This document shows positions 2,947 to 8,292 of a stretch of 42,910 nt of DNA, piece after piece. The stretch lies in the NCBI GenBank assembly GCA_019694755.1, contig JAIBBI010000030.1:1-42910 (forward strand). Reading direction: 5' to 3'. The number at the start of each line of letters is the position of its first letter. Within the stretch, counting starts at the first letter, position 1. The notes beneath the pieces are model-generated. The model was given only the letters and a program-made list of their open reading frames with translations, did not search any database and was not told the DNA's origin. The DNA comes from Gemmataceae bacterium (lineage in GTDB: Bacteria; Planctomycetota; Planctomycetia; Gemmatales; Gemmataceae). The translations under genes and the position numbers were made by a program.

Positions 2947-3133
2947 TTCGCCCGATGGGAGGTCGCTGGGGCCCGGGACGCGATCCTTTACTGACAATTG
3001 TAGGGACTCGGCCCGCCCGCCGACGGTTCGGAGCGTCGCCGGGCCCACAAAGGAAACCGGAATCCCCGCGGCGAGTCAACACCGGGAAACGCCCTGGGGG
3101 GATGACGCACGCTCTTGAAACCCGGCAGCCTTA

Positions 3134-3222
3134 TTCGGGATCGCACACACCGGGCGCAACTTCAAGCGGATGAGGATTCCGTCCCTGGGGCGTCATCGCT
3201 TCTTCAGTCGGTGGGCCGGGAA
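3134..3222 (-). repeat. Array block A, copy 1
   Basis: Plus-strand core TTCAAGCGGATGAGG at 3161-3175, one base different from the commonest core. It is followed by a CCGTCCCTGGGGCGTCATCG stretch and CAGTCGGTGGGCC, all matching other copies in order. The last codons of the membrane-protein gene ending at 3204 lie inside it. This is the left-most copy; nothing repeat-like is seen between it and the HlyD gene. Confidence 0.8.
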
Positions 3223-3548
3223 AGCGATTTGGCGATTCCACGCTTGTTTGCGGAGCGGGACACGAGCCACAATAACCCGGCGATCGGGCCCCACAGCGCG
3301 ACGAAGTTTATGATCGCCGGGAGCCAAATGACCAGCCACAGGTCAGATTGCTCGAAAGCTGCTGGCACCGGGATCCGGTCCAATGCCAAGAACGCGGGGA
3401 GCCCCAATAAGCCGATGGCCCGGTCGTAGCGGCCATGTCCGCCCCCGAACCCGCCTTGGCAAGCGAACAGCAGTGAAGCGGCCGCGCCACAAGCGATCGG
3501 TATGGCGGCAGAGATGACCGCCATGTGTTGAATCGCACGCGGCCCCAC
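3204..3548 (-). CDS. Small predicted three-helix membrane protein (array gene 8)
   Basis: About 114 residues, family not recognised. Three hydrophobic segments are visible: MAVISAAIPIACGAAASLLF near the start, AIGLLGLPAFLALDRIPV in the middle, and a long one (LWLVIWLPAIINFVALWG onwards) near the end; the tail RGIAKSLSRPTD is basic and polar. The GTG at 3548 is preferred because GAGAGG lies 7 bases upstream. A GTG at 3566 and an ATG at 3524 are also possible, the latter without a ribosome-binding site. The last codons fall inside repeat block A copy 1, where a TGA ends the frame earlier than in the two array genes that read through the block. As the last gene of the array it has no further array gene downstream. 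Function unknown; an immunity role would be inference from position only. Confidence 0.6.
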   Translation of the reverse strand: MGPRAIQHMAVISAAIPIACGAAASLLFACQGGFGGGHGRYDRAIGLLGLPAFLALDRIPVPAAFEQSDLWLVIWLPAIINFVALWGPIAGLLWLVSRSANKRGIAKSLSRPTD

Positions 3549-3705
3549 GGGAACGCCTCTCGCCACGCCGAACGAAATCTCTAACTTCCGAAACGGCTTA
3601 GCAGCTCGCCGAAACAGCGACAGGACGCTTCCCTTGCCTTAGAAAGTAGTGGGCCGGGCCTGTCGTCAAGTTGGCTATTGAATGACCTATCCGGGCACAG
3701 CCAAA

Positions 3706-3832
3706 TGGAAAGCCAACATTGTCAAACAAGATCGCAGACGCCGAGCGTAACTTCAGGCGGATGAGGAAGTCGCCCCCGGGGCTTCAACGATTCTTGAGTC
3801 GGTAGGCCGTGAACACGGTTCGCCGTCGCGGC
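3706..3832 (-). repeat. Array block A, copy 2
   Basis: Contains the consensus core TTCAGGCGGATGAGG at 3752-3766, the upstream element GAAAGCCAACATTGTCAAAC at 3708-3727, and the far element GGCCGTGAACACGGTTCG near 3805-3822, whose CCGTG-AA-CACGG is a short inverted repeat. It follows the stop of the SMI1/KNR4 gene by about ten bases. The preceding stretch 3567-3705 has no gene. Part of it (near 3651-3690) resembles the stretch at 5790-5825 before copy 4. Confidence 0.85.
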
Positions 3833-3840
3833 TACACAAA

Positions 3841-4338
3841 TTAGTCCTCGCCGGACGGGGCAAGGCCGGCTACGAACTCGGTAAACGAGTTGGCGAGCAG
3901 TTGCAGATTGCCCGCCGACTCCACCGCCCCGTCCCAGTCGTCGCCCGGCTCGTTCTCGTGGTCCCAGAAGTACACTCGCCCGCGATGCGGTCCGTTCACC
4001 CCGACGCAGATGGCGTTTCCGAACGGGTCGTCCGCAACCCATACCAGGGCGGCCGGGATGCGCCCGGCATAGCACTTCCGTTTGTCGTCCAGGGAGAAGT
4101 AGTTTTCCTCACGGAACCCGCCGACGTGGTGAAGGCCGGCGTCAGCGGCCAAGCCTTCCGGGGTCGGCCCTTTAAACCACAGGGAGCCACCGATATGCCC
4201 GCCGTTGCAGGCCACGAGGAATTGACGGTAGTCGTCGGGCAGCGTGTGACCGATGGCACGTTCGAAAGACGCGAGATCCTCCAAGGGGGCCGGCGGCTGC
4301 TTGTCGTCGATCGCCGCGTAGAGTTCATCGATCGTCAT
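3841..4338 (-). CDS. SMI1/KNR4 (SUKH) family protein (array gene 7)
   Basis: 165 residues with the SUKH/SMI1-KNR4 fold signature. There is an N-terminal acidic helix, then ALEDLASFERAIG-like text (seen as LEDLASFERAIGHTLPDDYR), the hallmark turn FLVACNGGHIGGSLWF, a central AGRIPAALVWVADDPFGNAIC, and RVYFWDHENEPGDDWDG before the final helix LLANSFTEFVAGL. SUKH proteins in bacteria are best known as immunity proteins that bind and neutralise polymorphic toxins, often in tandem loci; here no cognate toxin is in view. The ATG at 4338 is chosen because GGAGG lies 5 bases upstream. An in-frame ATG 15 bases earlier overlaps that ribosome-binding site. The ATGGCGGAGGG start context recurs at other array genes. 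Block B precedes the gene and block A follows it. Confidence 0.88.
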   Translation of the reverse strand: MTIDELYAAIDDKQPPAPLEDLASFERAIGHTLPDDYRQFLVACNGGHIGGSLWFKGPTPEGLAADAGLHHVGGFREENYFSLDDKRKCYAGRIPAALVWVADDPFGNAICVGVNGPHRGRVYFWDHENEPGDDWDGAVESAGNLQLLANSFTEFVAGLAPSGED

Positions 4339-4342
4339 GCGC

Positions 4343-4470
4343 CCCTCCGCCATCGAACGTCTCGCTCACCGGCCGGGGCAATCGTCCGGCTGACTTCAAG
4401 CTGCAAAATGCAAACGACCCGGTGAAAGTCTATGACGCGATGCCAGTCCGAAAGACTGGGAGTACCTTTC
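4343..4470 (-). repeat. Array block B, copy 1
   Basis: Conserved 5' block upstream of the SMI1/KNR4 gene. On the plus strand it reads CTCCGCCATCGAACG, then a segment at 4366-4400 containing GGCAATCGTCCGGCTGACTT, then CCCGGTGAAAGTC and GACGCGATGCC. Its gene-proximal end carries the GGAGGG ribosome-binding site. It contains a perfect small hairpin CCAGTC-CGAAA-GACTGG at 4443-4459 that is not shared with the other copies. Probably carries the promoter or 5' leader of the gene; no clear -35/-10 pair was found. Confidence 0.75.
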
Positions 4471-4471
4471 A

Positions 4472-4580
4472 GACAGGCAGCAATCCGGTTTGAGATCGCA
4501 ATCCCGCCGGTGCCGGGTGTACCTTCAGGCGGATGAGGAATCCGTACTCGGGGCATCGTCGTCTTTTGTGTCGGTGAGCT
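4472..4580 (-). repeat. Array block A, copy 3
   Basis: Consensus core TTCAGGCGGATGAGG at 4524-4538, preceded by GCCGGTGCCGGGTGTACC and followed by a GGGGCATCGTCGTCTTTTG stretch. It directly abuts block B copy 1, so the two make one intergenic module. The stop of the neighbouring gene (TGA, 4525-4527) lies inside the core, so that gene reads into the block. Confidence 0.85.
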
Positions 4581-5007
4581 GTGAGAGAGGTCCGGCGAGC
4601 CTTTGCTCCGCGGCCTGTGCCCGGAAAAACTCGTCCCAAGACGCTGCCGCCCTATCCCAGCACCGCAGCGACTCGGGGCCGAGCATGGCCCGGAACTGGG
4701 CCGGTTCGGTGCCGTGCTCGTGCAGGTTCCAGTTCTGCAAGTCCTCCAGCAGCCCCTCCGTGGCCGCCGTGTGGACGTACTCGTCCCCCTCCAAGTGCCA
4801 CCGCTCGACCACACGGAACACGGCCGGCAGCTCGCCCCCCTCGCCCCGCTCGACCAGCCCGATCAGGTGCCAGGCAAGGTAGCTGAGGGCCACGTAAAGC
4901 GGCAGGTCGGCCTCGCCCTGCCACTCGGCAAGGAATTCCTGCCACGCCGGGGCGAACGACGGGCAGGCGTCGAGGAGCACGGGCAGCATGTCGTCCTTGG
5001 TGATCAT
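4525..5007 (-). CDS. DUF7674-like protein (array gene 6)
   Basis: 160 residues, mostly alpha-helical and acidic. The layout resembles the DUF7674 type family: DMLPVLLDACPSFAPAWQEF near the start, YVALSYLAWHLIGLVERGE, then LPAVFRVVERWHLEGDEYV and ATEGLLEDLQNW. The similarity is remembered, not searched, so the family name is tentative. The last residues (DDDAPSTDSSSA) are encoded by repeat block A copy 3 and recur almost unchanged at the end of another unrelated array gene (7888-8292). The ATG at 5007 has GGAGGG about 9 bases upstream, within the conserved start context of block B copy 2. Biochemical function unknown; an immunity-type role is inferred from the SMI1/KNR4 neighbour. Confidence 0.75.
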   Translation of the reverse strand: MITKDDMLPVLLDACPSFAPAWQEFLAEWQGEADLPLYVALSYLAWHLIGLVERGEGGELPAVFRVVERWHLEGDEYVHTAATEGLLEDLQNWNLHEHGTEPAQFRAMLGPESLRCWDRAAASWDEFFRAQAAEQRLAGPLSQLTDTKDDDAPSTDSSSA

Positions 5008-5017
5008 CGGCCAGACG

Positions 5018-5085
5018 CCCTCCGCCGCCGAACCCTCACCGGCCGGGGCAATCGTCCGGCTGACTTCACACTACACGACGCGACT
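5018..5085 (-). repeat. Array block B, copy 2
   Basis: Carries CCTCCGCC, then CTCACCGGCCGGGGCAATCG and TCCGGCTGACTTCA, identical to copy 1 over about 35 bases, and then diverges after ACTACACGACGCGAC. Unlike copies 1 and 3 it is not joined to a block A; it runs instead into the region behind the low-GC gene at 5174-5647. Confidence 0.75.
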
Positions 5086-5173
5086 GCCCCGGGCAGGCGC
5101 GGCGGCTTGATCGGCAAAGCTATGACCAGCGAATTGCACCCGTCAATCCCGAAGAAGCGAGTTAGTTTCAACG

Positions 5174-5647
5174 TCACAACAGTCCCTTGAACCATGCCCT
5201 TGCAAATGCACTAAGGACTGCGCCGCCGAGCCCATAAAGCGTCGGCACACTTATCGTCAACACGATCGAACGCCATCCTTCGACGTTGCGAGGTAAGACA
5301 AATTGCCCGAAAACAAATCCAAGGACTGCAGAACCAATGGCCAAGTATTGCTGTACAGACAGGCCGGCAAGACCTGCGTTTTCCGGACTGATATGCACGC
5401 TGGCAATTGTTCGATCGCCGCTCTGCGTAAACACCATCACATTTCCATCTGCTTTTTTCCAAAATGCAGTTTCTACTTGTGGGTTGCCCATCTTCGCGAT
5501 CGCTTCATCGTACCCCATTCCAATTTGAATGGACTGATCATAAGGACTTGGTGACCGAGATGAATCAGGTCGCACGAATGGCATTAGCACCAATGCGACC
5601 ACCAGAACATCGAACATCACAAATAATATTCGCCAATGTCTCTTCAT
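5174..5647 (-). CDS. Predicted membrane protein with a BamE/SmpA-like motif (array gene 5, low GC)
   Basis: 157 residues. An N-terminal membrane segment (RILFVMFDVLVVALVLMPFV) is followed by an extracytoplasmic stretch and two C-terminal membrane segments (YLAIGSAVLGFVFGQFVL and IVLTISVPTLYGLGGAVLSA). The soluble part, about residues 40-95, contains IQIGMGYDEAIAKMGNPQVE, which resembles the short helix-turn motif of SmpA/OmlA/BamE-like and related small inhibitor domains; this is a loose likeness. Base use differs from the surroundings: the row 5401-5460 has 28 G/C in 60 (47%), far below the flanking genes. No block A follows it, so it shares a repeat-to-repeat interval with the DUF7674-like gene. 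Start ATG at 5647 (MKRHWRIL); AGTGACATG context without a strong ribosome-binding site. Function unknown; base composition suggests recent acquisition. Confidence 0.72.
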   Translation of the reverse strand: MKRHWRILFVMFDVLVVALVLMPFVRPDSSRSPSPYDQSIQIGMGYDEAIAKMGNPQVETAFWKKADGNVMVFTQSGDRTIASVHISPENAGLAGLSVQQYLAIGSAVLGFVFGQFVLPRNVEGWRSIVLTISVPTLYGLGGAVLSAFARAWFKGLL

Positions 5648-5841
5648 GTCACTTTCCCGTAAGCGACTCCGCCGCCAAACAAAAGGCCACCGGCCTGGGC
5701 GGCGCTGGAGCTAGACCATTGAGGTATCCTATCTTCCGCCCGCGCCCGGTGCAACGACTGGATACTCCTCACGGCCGCAATGGTGACGGACCGGGCCAGT
5801 CGCCAAGGTGACCGATGATGGAACTATTCCGGTACCGCCCG
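5648..5841. other. Non-coding spacer in the array
   Basis: Together with block A copy 4 this makes a 366-base stretch without a gene. No open frame with coding character was seen. The segment near 5790-5825 (ACCGGGCCAGTCGCCAAGGT) resembles 3651-3690 before copy 2, which hints that some A copies have a longer conserved flank. Confidence 0.5.
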
Positions 5842-5972
5842 TTTGAAAGCTAACGGTGTCTAACTGTATCGCCGGTGCCGGGTGTACCTTCAGGCAGATG
5901 AGGAATCCGCTGCAGGAATGGCCATTGCATCTTGAGTCGGTGGGCCATGAACACGGTTCGGCGTGCCTTGGC
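5842..5972 (-). repeat. Array block A, copy 4
   Basis: Core TTCAGGCAGATGAGG at 5889-5903 (one change from the commonest core). It is preceded by TTTGAAAGCTAACGGTGTCT and GCCGGTGCCGGGTGTACC, and followed by CTTGAGTCGGTGGGCC and ATGAACACGGTTCGGCG. It lies 40-170 bases behind the stop of the ankyrin gene, so here it is entirely non-coding. A GTCTAAC at 5858-5864 matches the RYYYAAC half of an integron attC site, but no matching partner half or long palindrome is present. Confidence 0.85.
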
Positions 5973-6013
5973 TACCAGAACCGCCACCATGGGCAACGCC
6001 GCGGCACAACCCC

Positions 6014-6406
6014 TCACCAGCCCTGGTGCTCCAACGCCCGCCGGCTGCGCACCTCGGTGTCGGCGCGCGTCGGCACACCGCCACCCCACTCCGACGCGCC
6101 TCGCGACACGAGCAATTCGAACACCGGGGTGTACTTGGCCCAGTCAATGAGGAACTGCGCCTGCATAACCAGATCGAGCACCTTCGGGGCATAGATCGAG
6201 GAGGCCGGCTCGCCGGCCTCCAAATTCGGGTCCGCGCCAAAGTCGAGCAGAAGCCGGACCATCTCAACGTCACCAGCGAGGCAAGCGACGAATAGAGCGG
6301 ACGCGCCCTGATCGCAGCGGGCATTGATATCGGCCCCGGCCGACACGAGTCGCCGCACTTCGTCGCGGTTTCCTGTGGCCACGGCTTCGAGGATGTGTCG
6401 CTCCAA
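6014..6406 (-). CDS. Small ankyrin-repeat protein (array gene 4)
   Basis: 130 residues with two clear ankyrin repeats and parts of a third: ILEAVATGNRDEVRRLVSAG, then GASALFVACLAGDVEMVRLL with LDFGADPNLE, then a degenerate repeat ending PVFELLVSRGASEWG. Ankyrin repeats bind proteins. Small free-standing ankyrin proteins are found among immunity proteins of polymorphic toxin loci, which would fit the SMI1/KNR4 neighbour, but no partner is in view. The start is probably TTG at 6406, with AGAGAG about 8 bases upstream; no ATG is available in frame near the first repeat. Block B copy 3 precedes it and block A copy 4 follows. The tail after EWGGGVPTRADTEV is basic and not repeat-like. Confidence 0.82.
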   Translation of the reverse strand: MERHILEAVATGNRDEVRRLVSAGADINARCDQGASALFVACLAGDVEMVRLLLDFGADPNLEAGEPASSIYAPKVLDLVMQAQFLIDWAKYTPVFELLVSRGASEWGGGVPTRADTEVRSRRALEHQGW

Positions 6407-6423
6407 GGGAAGCTCTCTTTCGC

Positions 6424-6535
6424 CGAACGACGCGACTCGGCTGCCTGGGCAATCGTACGGCTGACTTCAAACTACAGTACGCCACCGACTCGGTGAGAGC
6501 CCGTGCCGCGATGCTGGTCCGGCGTTCAAGTAGAA
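6424..6535 (-). repeat. Array block B, copy 3
   Basis: Aligns with copy 1 over about 100 bases: GGGCAATCGTACGGCTGACT, TTCAAACTACAGTACGCC, CGACTCGGTGAGAGCCCGTG and GCGATGCTGGTCCG all have counterparts in the same order. It sits directly upstream of the ankyrin gene and runs into block A copy 5, forming the second complete B+A module. Confidence 0.75.
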
Positions 6536-6555
6536 CTTTTCAATCTACAATTCCA

Positions 6556-6692
6556 CTGGTTGAAATCGCAACACTGTGAGGCGGATTCGCGGACGCCGGG
6601 TGCGACTTCGGGCGGATACGGAATTTGGCCTCGGGACCACATTGTCACCTGAGTCGGGAGGCCATGAGGACGGTTAAGCATGCCTTTGCTCC
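6556..6692 (-). repeat. Array block A, copy 5
   Basis: The most diverged copy: core TTCGGGCGGATACGG at 6607-6621 (three changes). It still has GACGCCGGGTGCGACTTC before the core and GAGTCGGGAGGCCATGAGGA then CGGTTAAGC after it, in the same order as the other copies. It lies immediately behind the stop of the lipoprotein gene ending at 6699. Confidence 0.75.
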
Positions 6693-6698
6693 TCGCAC

Positions 6699-7142
6699 CT
6701 ACGTGTCCCACTCGCAGTAGAACCACTTGTCGTCGATGGTCACAAACTTCCAGTACCCCCACTTGGCCCCACCGGGATGGCCGCCGTTGCGGTACTCCTC
6801 GGGGACGCCCTCCAGCCCGCGCGGCGAGTAAATGTAAAGTGGTACTGCGTCGGTGGGCATGAACCAGAAGTAGATCTCGACACAGTCTGCCCGGCGGATC
6901 ACCTCCTTAACGTCGTTGTCAATGAAGAGTTGGGGCAGGAAACATCTCTGCTCGTCGTGTCGAACTTCACCCCGCTCCAGCCGCTCGACATACGAGTCGA
7001 ACACCGGCCGATGCTTGTTGAAGAACGCGATCCTTGTTTCAAGAGAGTTCGGCTTGGACGAACAGCCCATCACTTGGAGGGACGCCAGCGCAACGACCAG
7101 CCATGGGAACAGGCACAATAAGGCGATGCCGATTTTTCGCAC
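6699..7142 (-). CDS. Predicted lipoprotein of unknown family (array gene 3)
   Basis: 147 residues. Read from a GTG at 7142 the protein opens with VRKIGIALLCLFPWLVVALA and a lipobox-like SLQVMGC, so it is probably exported and lipidated, with Cys near residue 27. The mature part is acidic and aromatic-rich, with LETRIAFFNKHRPVFDSYV, QRCFLPQLFIDNDVKEV, VEIYFWFMPTDAVPLYIYSP and a Trp-rich end (GGAKWGYWKF, then WFYCEWDT). No family was recognised. The in-frame frame stays open to 7232, but GTG at 7142 is taken because the signal peptide then begins at residue 1 and GGAGGG lies about 9 bases upstream in the array's conserved start context. Block B copy 4 precedes it, block A copy 5 follows. An envelope-located immunity or inhibitor role is possible but unproven. 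Confidence 0.7.
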   Translation of the reverse strand: MRKIGIALLCLFPWLVVALASLQVMGCSSKPNSLETRIAFFNKHRPVFDSYVERLERGEVRHDEQRCFLPQLFIDNDVKEVIRRADCVEIYFWFMPTDAVPLYIYSPRGLEGVPEEYRNGGHPGGAKWGYWKFVTIDDKWFYCEWDT

Positions 7143-7148
7143 CCGCCA

Positions 7149-7210
7149 GCCCTCCGCCATCGACCAACACGCTCGCCGGCCGGGCCAACTCCCGACCGCC
7201 TTTAGCCGAC
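7149..7210 (-). repeat. Array block B, copy 4 (partial)
   Basis: Shares GCCCTCCGCCATCGA and CGCTCGCCGGCCGGGCCAA with copy 1, then diverges (CTCCCGACCGCC in place of TCGTCCGGCTGAC). It supplies the ribosome-binding context of the lipoprotein gene. Not joined to a block A; the next gene upstream ends 62 bases away. Confidence 0.6.
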
Positions 7211-7272
7211 ACGATGGGATTGCCCACGTCATTCACTGCGCGCAGTCATGCAATCCCGATTCGAGCATGTCG

Positions 7273-7677
7273 TCACCCATTCTCTTCGAACATCTTGGAG
7301 AAAGGAATGTCTCCGTTGGCACCATTGTCCCAGACAAAGTTCAGGTCATTATTCGGGTCCGTTGGCTCGAAAACGCTTTCGACAGCACCGTAGCACGCCA
7401 ATTCATGAAAGTCGTCTTCGCCCGTCGGCACAATGACCTCTTCCTCGCCCTGGAGAAAACACATGCTGGGACGGACCTTTTCCCGCGAGCAAGTCGGGTC
7501 GGTAATGTAGTATTGGTCCCATCCCGAGCACACGTTAAAGAGAAAAGACTGTATGATCTCGCGTTCCTGGCTTTCGTCAGTGACGCCATGCTCTTGCAAC
7601 GCACTTGCCAATTGGATTGCCATGACTTGCAAGTACCGAAATGTCAACTGAAAATGGTCCTTGGTGCTGATTTCCAT
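7273..7677 (-). CDS. Hypothetical acidic protein (array gene 2)
   Basis: 134 residues, soluble, no signal peptide or membrane segment, family not recognised. An N-terminal helical half (STKDHFQLTFRYLQVMAIQL, then HGVTDESQEREIIQSFLFNV) is followed by a beta-rich acidic half (MCFLQGEEEVIVPTGEDDF, ACYGAVESVFEPTDPNNDLN). The small size, acidity and position fit the general look of immunity proteins, which is weak evidence. The ATG at 7677 is chosen because GAGGAG lies about 6 bases upstream; the frame stays open to 7707. GC content is lower than in the flanking core genes (33 of 60 in 7561-7620). No block A lies between this gene and the lipoprotein gene 130 bases downstream, so the two may move or be expressed as a pair. 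Confidence 0.68.
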   Translation of the reverse strand: MEISTKDHFQLTFRYLQVMAIQLASALQEHGVTDESQEREIIQSFLFNVCSGWDQYYITDPTCSREKVRPSMCFLQGEEEVIVPTGEDDFHELACYGAVESVFEPTDPNNDLNFVWDNGANGDIPFSKMFEENG

Positions 7678-7835
7678 TCGATCGCTCCTCAAGCGTAAAC
7701 GTGCCACTCACCAGCGTCGACAATGGACCGCCAACAACATGATAACGCGGGGGTGCTCCCGCGGCCGGTGCGCCATCGGCCAAAACGGAAGTAGCAGATT
7801 TGTGAAAGTGCTTGACGACGCCAACCAATCGCCGC

Positions 7836-7966
7836 CCGGTTGAAAGCCAACGGTTTCAAACCAGATCACCTGTGCCGGGCGTAAATTTCAGGCGGATGAG
7901 GAATCCGTCCCCGGAGCGTCGTCGCCTAATGATTCGGTAGTCGTTGAGAACGGTTCGGCGCCGCCC
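7836..7966 (-). repeat. Array block A, copy 6
   Basis: Consensus core TTCAGGCGGATGAGG at 7887-7901. Upstream of it is a near-perfect inverted repeat GGTTGAAA-GCCAACGG-TTTCAAACC (7838-7863) that is only partly kept in copies 2 and 4. Around the core, GGCGGAT-GAGGA-ATCCGTC can form a 7-bp hairpin with one G-T pair. The stop codon of the gene ending at 7888 lies in the core, and about 27 codons of that gene lie within the block. Confidence 0.85.
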
Positions 7967-8292
7967 CCAATCAGAGAGAATAGGTACTCGGTTCTCTTCG
8001 CGCAGAACCCCTTCTCAAACTCACCCTGTTCCTCCAGGGCGGTCAGCGCATCGTTGAGAGGACCAATAGCCTCTTTCGGGCAGGCGAAGTAAGCCGTATC
8101 CTCCACAATCGTGTTTACCCAAGTACCGACCGGAATACCGCGATGCTGCAACACAGCGAGTAGCCGCTTCGCATCTTCGTCCGGCGGCAATCCCGATTCA
8201 TCAGCCAAGAGTCGCGGGAATGCAAAGAAAGTCCACAGACAGTTGCCAGCTCTCCGATACGCATCGGTGTCAAAATGCATGATTGCAGTCAT
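7888..8292 (-). CDS. Hypothetical protein ending in a repeat-encoded tail (array gene 1)
   Basis: 134 residues, soluble, not recognised. The N-terminal part has AGNCLWTFFAFPRLLADES and a helical acidic middle (AIGPLNDALTALEEQGEFE). The last 27 or so residues are encoded by block A copy 6 and end DDAPGTDSSSA, almost the same as the end of the unrelated protein at 4525-5007. So either the block adds a common tail to both proteins, or both lost their own stop codons when the block joined. The ATG at 8292 has no good ribosome-binding site; an ATG four codons later is an alternative. No block B copy lies upstream. Only 33 bases separate the start from the stop of the secreted-protein gene at 8326. 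It is the right-hand end of the array. Confidence 0.65.
   Translation of the reverse strand: MTAIMHFDTDAYRRAGNCLWTFFAFPRLLADESGLPPDEDAKRLLAVLQHRGIPVGTWVNTIVEDTAYFACPKEAIGPLNDALTALEEQGEFEKGFCAKRTEYLFSLIGGGAEPFSTTTESLGDDAPGTDSSSA

What the first reader, a model, noticed from the sequence alone, without database searches (positions are those of the whole stretch)
3134..8292. Repeat-separated array of small unrelated genes: a candidate polyimmunity or gene-cassette island
Eight small genes on one strand, with no likeness to each other, are separated by copies of the same conserved blocks (A downstream, B upstream). One is a clear SMI1/KNR4 protein and one a small ankyrin protein, both types met among immunity proteins of polymorphic toxins. 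The repeats rather than the genes are conserved, which is what is expected when unrelated cargo is gained and lost through shared flanks. No toxin, recombinase or integrase is in view. I know of no described system with exactly these flanks, but I could not search.
Basis: partly seen in the sequence, partly recalled or inferred. Interest (0 to 1): 0.85.

Follow-up and report, generated by a model that had tools for sequence, protein, structure and literature searches.

The report
Integron cassettes tagged by miniature insertion elements
The repeat-separated small genes are a decayed array of integron gene cassettes in a Gemmataceae bacterium, and the conserved repeat is the leftover of an RNA-guided-type insertion sequence (IS1111 family) that inserts at one fixed spot inside the cassettes' own recombination sites.

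Summary
Confirmed: eight small, unrelated minus-strand genes (3204-8292) are separated by repeats, 6 of block A and about 4 of block B.

Block B is the 3' half of integron attC sites. An attC covariance model, built from textbook attC sites elsewhere in this genome, finds 57 sites genome-wide, one of them significant in the window (5027-5115). Three weak matches in the window lie exactly at gene starts. The genome has a genuine integron integrase with divergent cassettes on contig C68. Each cassette's R'' complements that same cassette's start (45 cassettes, P 5e-5), as circular cassettes require. So this is an integrase-less, partly decayed cassette array (CALIN).

Block A is not part of a normal attC. 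It is one end plus adjoining non-coding region of an IS1111-family insertion sequence, lodged between R'' and the attC stem. A full-length relative (348-aa transposase, 1.9-kb insert) sits at the same position in another Gemmataceae genus; removing it restores a perfect attC. In this genome about 50 copies remain, all on the cassette strand and without a detectable transposase. Several share identical internal deletions, suggesting spread as miniature elements.

"Gene-cassette island" is right. "Polyimmunity" is not supported: 97 cassette ORFs are functionally diverse.

The parts
7888..8292 (-). cassette gene 8, 134 aa, no Pfam match; C-terminal tail AEPF...DDAPGTDSSSA* is read into block A
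   Evidence: ORF list; Pfam; stop inside block A
7273..7680 (-). cassette gene 7, 135 aa, no Pfam match
6699..7145 (-). cassette gene 6, about 148 aa, no Pfam match
6014..6406 (-). cassette gene 5, ankyrin-repeat protein
   Evidence: PF13637 4.9e-13
5174..5647 (-). cassette gene 4, 157 aa, only sub-cut-off Pfam matches
4525..5007 (-). cassette gene 3, DUF7674; tail DDDAPSTDSSSA* from block A
   Evidence: PF24722 1.2e-19
3841..4338 (-). cassette gene 2, SMI1/KNR4 (SUKH-1)
   Evidence: PF09346 9.1e-20
3204..3566 (-). cassette gene 1, 120 aa; ends in block A (RPTD*)
5027..5115 (-). attC site between gene 4 and gene 3 (R'' GCCGATC, R' GTTCGGC)
   Evidence: attC model R1, 30.2 bits, E 1.4e-6 over 12 kb, 6.5e-4 over the whole genome
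6422..6523 (-). degenerate attC before gene 5 (R'' GCCGGAC, R' GTTCGGC)
   Evidence: R1 16.8 bits, E 0.007 over 12 kb; not significant genome-wide
5674..5767 (-). degenerate attC stem before gene 4 (R' GTTTGGC), directly after the insertion element
   Evidence: R1 14.9 bits; boundary
4352..4441 (-). degenerate attC before gene 2 (block B), R' GTTCGAT
   Evidence: R1 12.9 bits; weak on its own
5956..5962 (-). attC R'' GCCGAAC of gene 5's cassette, complementary to that cassette's start TTCGGC at about 6424
   Evidence: sequence; rule tested
5761..5955 (-). miniature IS1111-attC-type element (195 bp), both ends present, no transposase
3624..3817 (-). second miniature element of the same deletion form, right boundary diverged
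7846..7960 (-). block A (RE plus NCR of the IS) after gene 8
6569..6680 (-). block A after gene 6
5850..5963 (-). block A after gene 5 (part of the element 5761-5955)
4500..4597 (-). block A after gene 3 (R'' CGCCGGAC against own cassette start GTTCGGCG)
3712..3825 (-). block A after gene 2 (part of the element 3624-3817)
3123..3234 (-). block A after gene 1, end of the array; R'' decayed to CGCCAAAT

Best explanation
The region is an integron cassette array without its own integrase (CALIN), in a genome that carries an integron integrase on another contig. Each cassette is a promiscuous small gene plus an attC site, captured as a circle by IntI (established mechanism; the attC sites, the integrase and the cassette logic are shown here, recombination is inferred). 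Block A plus the variable modules after it is a transposase-less derivative of an IS1111-family insertion sequence of the attC-targeting type. It is inserted in fixed orientation directly 3' of R'' (GCCGAAC|C), so the attC reads R''-[insert]-stem-R'. Block A is the IS right end (3-bp extension, subterminal repeat TCTCATGGCC) and the adjoining non-coding region; the far end is GGCCATGAGA plus a 6-7-bp extension. The insert was presumably placed by a seekRNA-guided DEDD transposase that reads the R''/stem junction (inferred). Deletion derivatives that kept both ends then spread to about 50 cassettes, probably with transposase supplied in trans, and are now fossil or waiting (inferred). Consequences: genes read through R'' into the element and gain a DSSSA tail (seen), and R'' is moved 140-460 bp away from the attC stem, which probably lowers or blocks excision (inferred).
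For: Integron: TIGR02249 integrase, 355 bits against a 265 cut-off, best solved relative V. cholerae IntI4, 1.6e-71, divergent from its first cassettes with attI-like GTTAGGTC. attC hairpin: 9 pairs with two-sided changes, 18 such cells, 0/500 shuffles, two extrahelical bases. 57 model hits in the genome, many on the same contigs and strand as block A. R'' complements the start of its own cassette (45 cassettes, P 5e-5; attC-ended alone P 5e-5; block-A-ended alone, n=13, P 0.03), e.g. GCACCTAAC/GTTAGGTGC and CGCCCAAC/GTTGGGCG for block-A cassettes. IS: profile relatives of block A in 17 other family genomes, beside attC sites in most of the loci read; common right boundary ...GGCCATGAGA(A/T)GTATC|C; longer forms hold an antisense IS110-type N-terminus; full-length copy in L088 with 348-aa PF02371/PF01548 transposase, long downstream NCR, and an empty site that refolds as attC. 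The 6-7/3-bp extensions, sTIR, transposase length and NCR position match IS1111 (PMC11187229). The same internal deletion in five copies at three loci.
Against: Only one attC in the window is significant alone; the others score 12.9-16.8 bits. The commonest form in the genome (X form, 13 copies, none in the window) shares block A but has a different module and no C97-type stem, so its right end is unresolved. No copy of the transposase is found in this genome, although a draft assembly can lose repeats. The block-A-only test of R'' complementarity is weak (P 0.03). The sTIR core is 10-11 bp, at or just below the usual 11-13. No genome of the same species with an empty site was available.
Confidence: 0.88

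Rival explanations
1. Block A plus stem is a lineage-specific, oversized attC site (200-460 bp) in which the extra segment is a native part of the recombination site, not an inserted element.
For: Block A starts with the true R'', is very numerous, has a covarying short hairpin, and X-form copies share one stem family.
Against: C97-type attC sites in the same genome lack it and are otherwise the same; a full-length copy encodes an IS110/IS1111 transposase and its removal restores a canonical attC; it has subterminal inverted repeats and deletion forms.
Confidence: 0.07
2. Polyimmunity locus: an array of immunity genes against polymorphic toxins, moved by homologous recombination between repeats.
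For: SUKH-1 and ankyrin genes in the window; two CdiI_N hits in other arrays.
Against: 97 cassette ORFs are functionally mixed, with no family over two members; no toxin in view; attC sites and integrase explain mobility.
Confidence: 0.03
3. Block A is a shared 3' regulatory element (terminator or stability hairpin) unrelated to mobile DNA.
For: Always at gene 3' ends and in gene orientation; short conserved hairpin.
Against: No Rfam match in the window, no T-run, only next to integron cassettes, and sequence continuity with a full-length IS.
Confidence: 0.02

Closest known systems
CALIN / chromosomal integron cassette array (attC sites without a neighbouring intI)
   Same: Tandem single-ORF cassettes on one strand, attC with R'', L'', L', R', extrahelical bases, R''/cassette-start complementarity, integrase elsewhere in the genome
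   Different: Most attC sites in the window are decayed or split by an insert; cassettes start with a constant GGCGGAG Shine-Dalgarno-like stretch and many are preceded by leader modules
IS1111-attC group insertion sequences (Tetu and Holmes 2008; Post and Hall 2009; ISKpn4, ISPst6, ISPa25 in PMC11187229)
   Same: IS1111-type ends (subterminal repeats, 6-7/3-bp extensions), DEDD plus PF02371 transposase of 348 aa with NCR downstream, insertion at one end of attC in fixed orientation
   Different: Gemmataceae lineage; in this genome no transposase remains and about 50 short derivatives occupy cassettes; several internal-deletion forms; guide RNA only inferred
Group IIC-attC introns
   Same: Also insert in attC, near R''
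   Different: No intron domain or reverse transcriptase found; Rfam search of the window negative; the element has an IS110-type transposase instead
Polyimmunity loci of polymorphic toxin systems (PMC3482391, listed)
   Same: Contains a SUKH and an ankyrin gene
   Different: Cargo is mixed; mobility comes from attC

Membership tests
Integron cassette array (CALIN) | attC hairpin with R''/R' and extrahelical bases at cassette ends | tested here: met
   Model from 8 sites, 0/500 shuffles; 57 genome hits; window 5027-5115 30.2 bits, other window junctions weak
Integron cassette array (CALIN) | R'' of a cassette complements the start of the same cassette | tested here: met
   45 cassettes, P 5e-5
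Integron cassette array (CALIN) | integron-type tyrosine integrase in the genome | tested here: met
   C68, TIGR02249 355 bits; 2A3V 1.6e-71; 46 of 95 family genomes have one
Integron cassette array (CALIN) | actual excision or integration by IntI | not testable with these tools
   needs an experiment
IS1111-family / IS1111-attC | subterminal inverted repeats, 11-13 bp, with 7 (or 6) and 3 bp extensions | tested here: met
   TCTCATGGCC / GGCCATGAGA (10-11 bp), extensions 3 and 6-7 bp (rule); length at the lower limit
IS1111-family / IS1111-attC | DEDD (PF01548) plus PF02371 transposase of 330-350 aa with NCR downstream | tested here: met
   Met in the full-length relative L088 (348 aa); not present in the window or this genome
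IS1111-family / IS1111-attC | insertion at one defined position and orientation in attC | tested here: met
   Right after R'' in this genome and in other genera
IS1111-family / IS1111-attC | NCR-encoded seekRNA with target matches | tested here: inconclusive
   24-nt core GCCGACCCCGTAGAGCTGTTTGGC conserved across genera, in the expected order; matches short and imperfect, RNA not shown
Miniature (transposase-less) element | several copies sharing the same internal deletion at unrelated sites | tested here: met
   Five copies of the about 200-bp form at three loci, two of the 261-bp and two of the about 383-bp form; 13 X-form copies
Polyimmunity locus | array dominated by immunity-protein families | tested here: not met

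The most novel reading that the evidence does not exclude
A miniature, transposase-less, RNA-guided-type element has made integron attC sites its standing home in Gemmataceae. It moves both by IS1111 transposition (in trans) and as a passenger of integron cassettes, and by separating R'' from the attC stem, extending the cassette protein and bringing a leader it has become a control element that fixes or tunes cassettes.
Probability: 0.25. Interest if true: 0.7.

Novelty: new variant of a known kind. Interest (0 to 1): 0.52.

Why it matters
Attack of attC sites by IS1111-group elements is known from integrons; a multi-copy population of short, transposase-free derivatives lodged in attC was not found in the papers I could search. 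It gives a natural series of attC sites with R'' displaced by 140-460 bp to test what integrases tolerate. It suggests that attC finders limited to short sites will miss such arrays. It also gives an RNA-guided IS family a clear, repeated target (R''/stem junction) across many genera, with a conserved 24-nt candidate guide.

Tried and rejected
Block A as attC by itself: no consensus hairpin on either strand. BLAST of block A in 95 family genomes found only this genome, and an exact pattern in 84,980 species found none; both were misleading, since a sequence profile then found relatives in 17 other family genomes. Polyimmunity: rejected by the Pfam census; PADLOC gave few hits. The original IS1111-attC paper (PMC2447020) is not held, so its details are from memory or from papers citing it. 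The X-form module (promoter-like, GCATGCC hairpin) was examined but its relation to the attC stem stayed unresolved.

Full report
What was checked. The eight small minus-strand ORFs and the two repeat families exist as described. Block A is far beyond chance: BLAST finds 33 copies in the genome, a profile 44-51, in clusters on one strand and beside the 3' ends of ORFs on the same strand.

Integron identity. The genome holds a true integron integrase on contig C68 (TIGR02249, 355 bits, cut-off 265; best solved relative V. cholerae IntI4). It is divergent from its cassettes, with GTTAGGTC before the first cassette and GACCTAAC at that cassette's end. Contig C97 carries textbook attC sites of about 95 bp: R'' GCCGAAC, long stem with two extrahelical bases, R' GTTCGGC followed by GGCGGAGG before the next start codon. 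Eight sites gave an alignment with nine pairs changed on both sides, 18 such cells and 0 of 500 shuffles as good. The derived model finds 57 sites in the genome, many interleaved with block A on C109, C12, C56, C104, C1 and C151.

Cassette logic. In an integron, R'' of a cassette pairs with the start of the same cassette, because both meet in the circular form. Over 45 cassettes with a model-defined start, observed R'' fits the own start better than shuffled partners (P 5e-5). For attC-ended cassettes, matches to the own start number 136 of 192, against 116 for the adjacent R'. It holds for cassettes that end in block A too (n=13, P 0.03): GCACCTAAC with GTTAGGTGC, although the neighbouring R' is GTTCGGCC, and CGCCCAAC with GTTGGGCG. 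So the first eight bases of block A are the real R'' of the cassette's attC.

What block A is. After block A the sequence runs on, ends in ...GGCCATGAGA(A/T)GTATC, and then the attC stem resumes with CAGGCGCTGCA; the insert is 138-459 bp in the short copies measured. A profile of block A finds relatives in 17 other Gemmataceae genomes from several genera. Where I read them, most lie beside attC sites, often with an R'' that fits the own cassette start, and several share the same right boundary. Longer copies carry, antisense to the cassette gene, the N-terminus of an IS110-type transposase (YKTQHSYYCGVDLHARSHFVNVHD). In L088 (another genus) the insert is 1.9 kb with an intact 348-aa ORF matching PF02371 and PF01548 and a long downstream non-coding region; joining its flanks gives a perfect attC hairpin with R''/R' paired. 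Published IS1111 features are subterminal repeats of 11-13 bp, extensions of 7 or 6 and 3 bp, transposases of 330-350 aa, NCR downstream, and attC-targeting members such as ISKpn4 (PMC11187229). All fit, with the repeat at the short end (10-11 bp). This genome has no PF01548 match.

Miniature forms. Five copies at three loci (two of them in the window) share one internal deletion (about 200 bp from R'' to boundary, one shortened further); others share a 261-bp or a 382-384-bp form, counted with R''. Thirteen copies form an X type with a different module. Shared deletions at unrelated cassettes are most simply explained by movement after deletion, that is, as miniature elements served by a transposase in trans; this is inference. 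A 24-nt stretch of the non-coding region is identical across genera and carries, in transposase orientation, GCCGAC then GCTGTTTGGC, which resemble the complement of GTTCGGC and the target CTGGTTCGGC, in the order reported for IS1111 seekRNAs. That is a candidate guide, not proof; the window copies lack it. Block A itself holds a short covarying hairpin.

Cargo. The 104 ORFs paired with attC or block A have a median of 163 aa. Pfam of 97 shows mixed functions with no immunity bias; PADLOC gives few hits. Integrases occur in 46 of 95 family genomes, so the setting is common in the family.

Shown: attC sites, integrase, cassette logic, position and ends of the insert, its full-length relative. 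Inferred: recombination activity, seekRNA guidance, spread in trans, and the effect on excision. Not solved: the right end of the X type, whether the arrays form one integron, and whether any element still moves.

Noticed in passing
L088:1784-2830 (+), G092:C613: Apparently intact IS1111-type transposase (348 aa) inside an attC of another Gemmataceae genus; candidate autonomous parent of the miniature elements.
   Followed up: yes
L043:8431-8454 (+), and L077, L079, L083, L084, L088, L092: 24-nt sequence GCCAAACAGCTCTACGGGGTCGGC, nearly invariant across genera in the IS non-coding region; candidate seekRNA guide core, retained in one copy of this genome among the stretches read.
   Followed up: partly
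L031, L032, L036, L037, L039, L040, L042, L044 after block A: X-form module of about 205 bp with a GCATGCC...GGCATGC hairpin and a promoter-like TTGTAC-N17-CAGAAT just before the next gene; may be a divergent attC stem or a leader.
   Followed up: partly
window 7888-8292, 4525-5007; L034, L035, L036, L039, L043, L044: Unrelated cassette proteins share a tail like (P/A)G(A/T)DSSSA because they read through R'' into block A; a genome-wide false protein 'motif'.
   Followed up: yes
L053:1762-2862 (+): C68 integrase has about 35 extra residues (234-268) relative to V. cholerae IntI4, and a 7-bp tandem repeat (GACCTCC) lies just after the gene.
   Followed up: no
G006: Genome with 13 IS110-type transposase matches, several on contigs C14 and C18 within a few kb of an integron integrase (C14:1281594, C18:77189).
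   Followed up: no
L077 (G088:C124:12000-23763): Array with at least five copies of the element in neighbouring cassettes on one strand, the longest about 460 bp; good material for ordering insertion events.
   Followed up: partly
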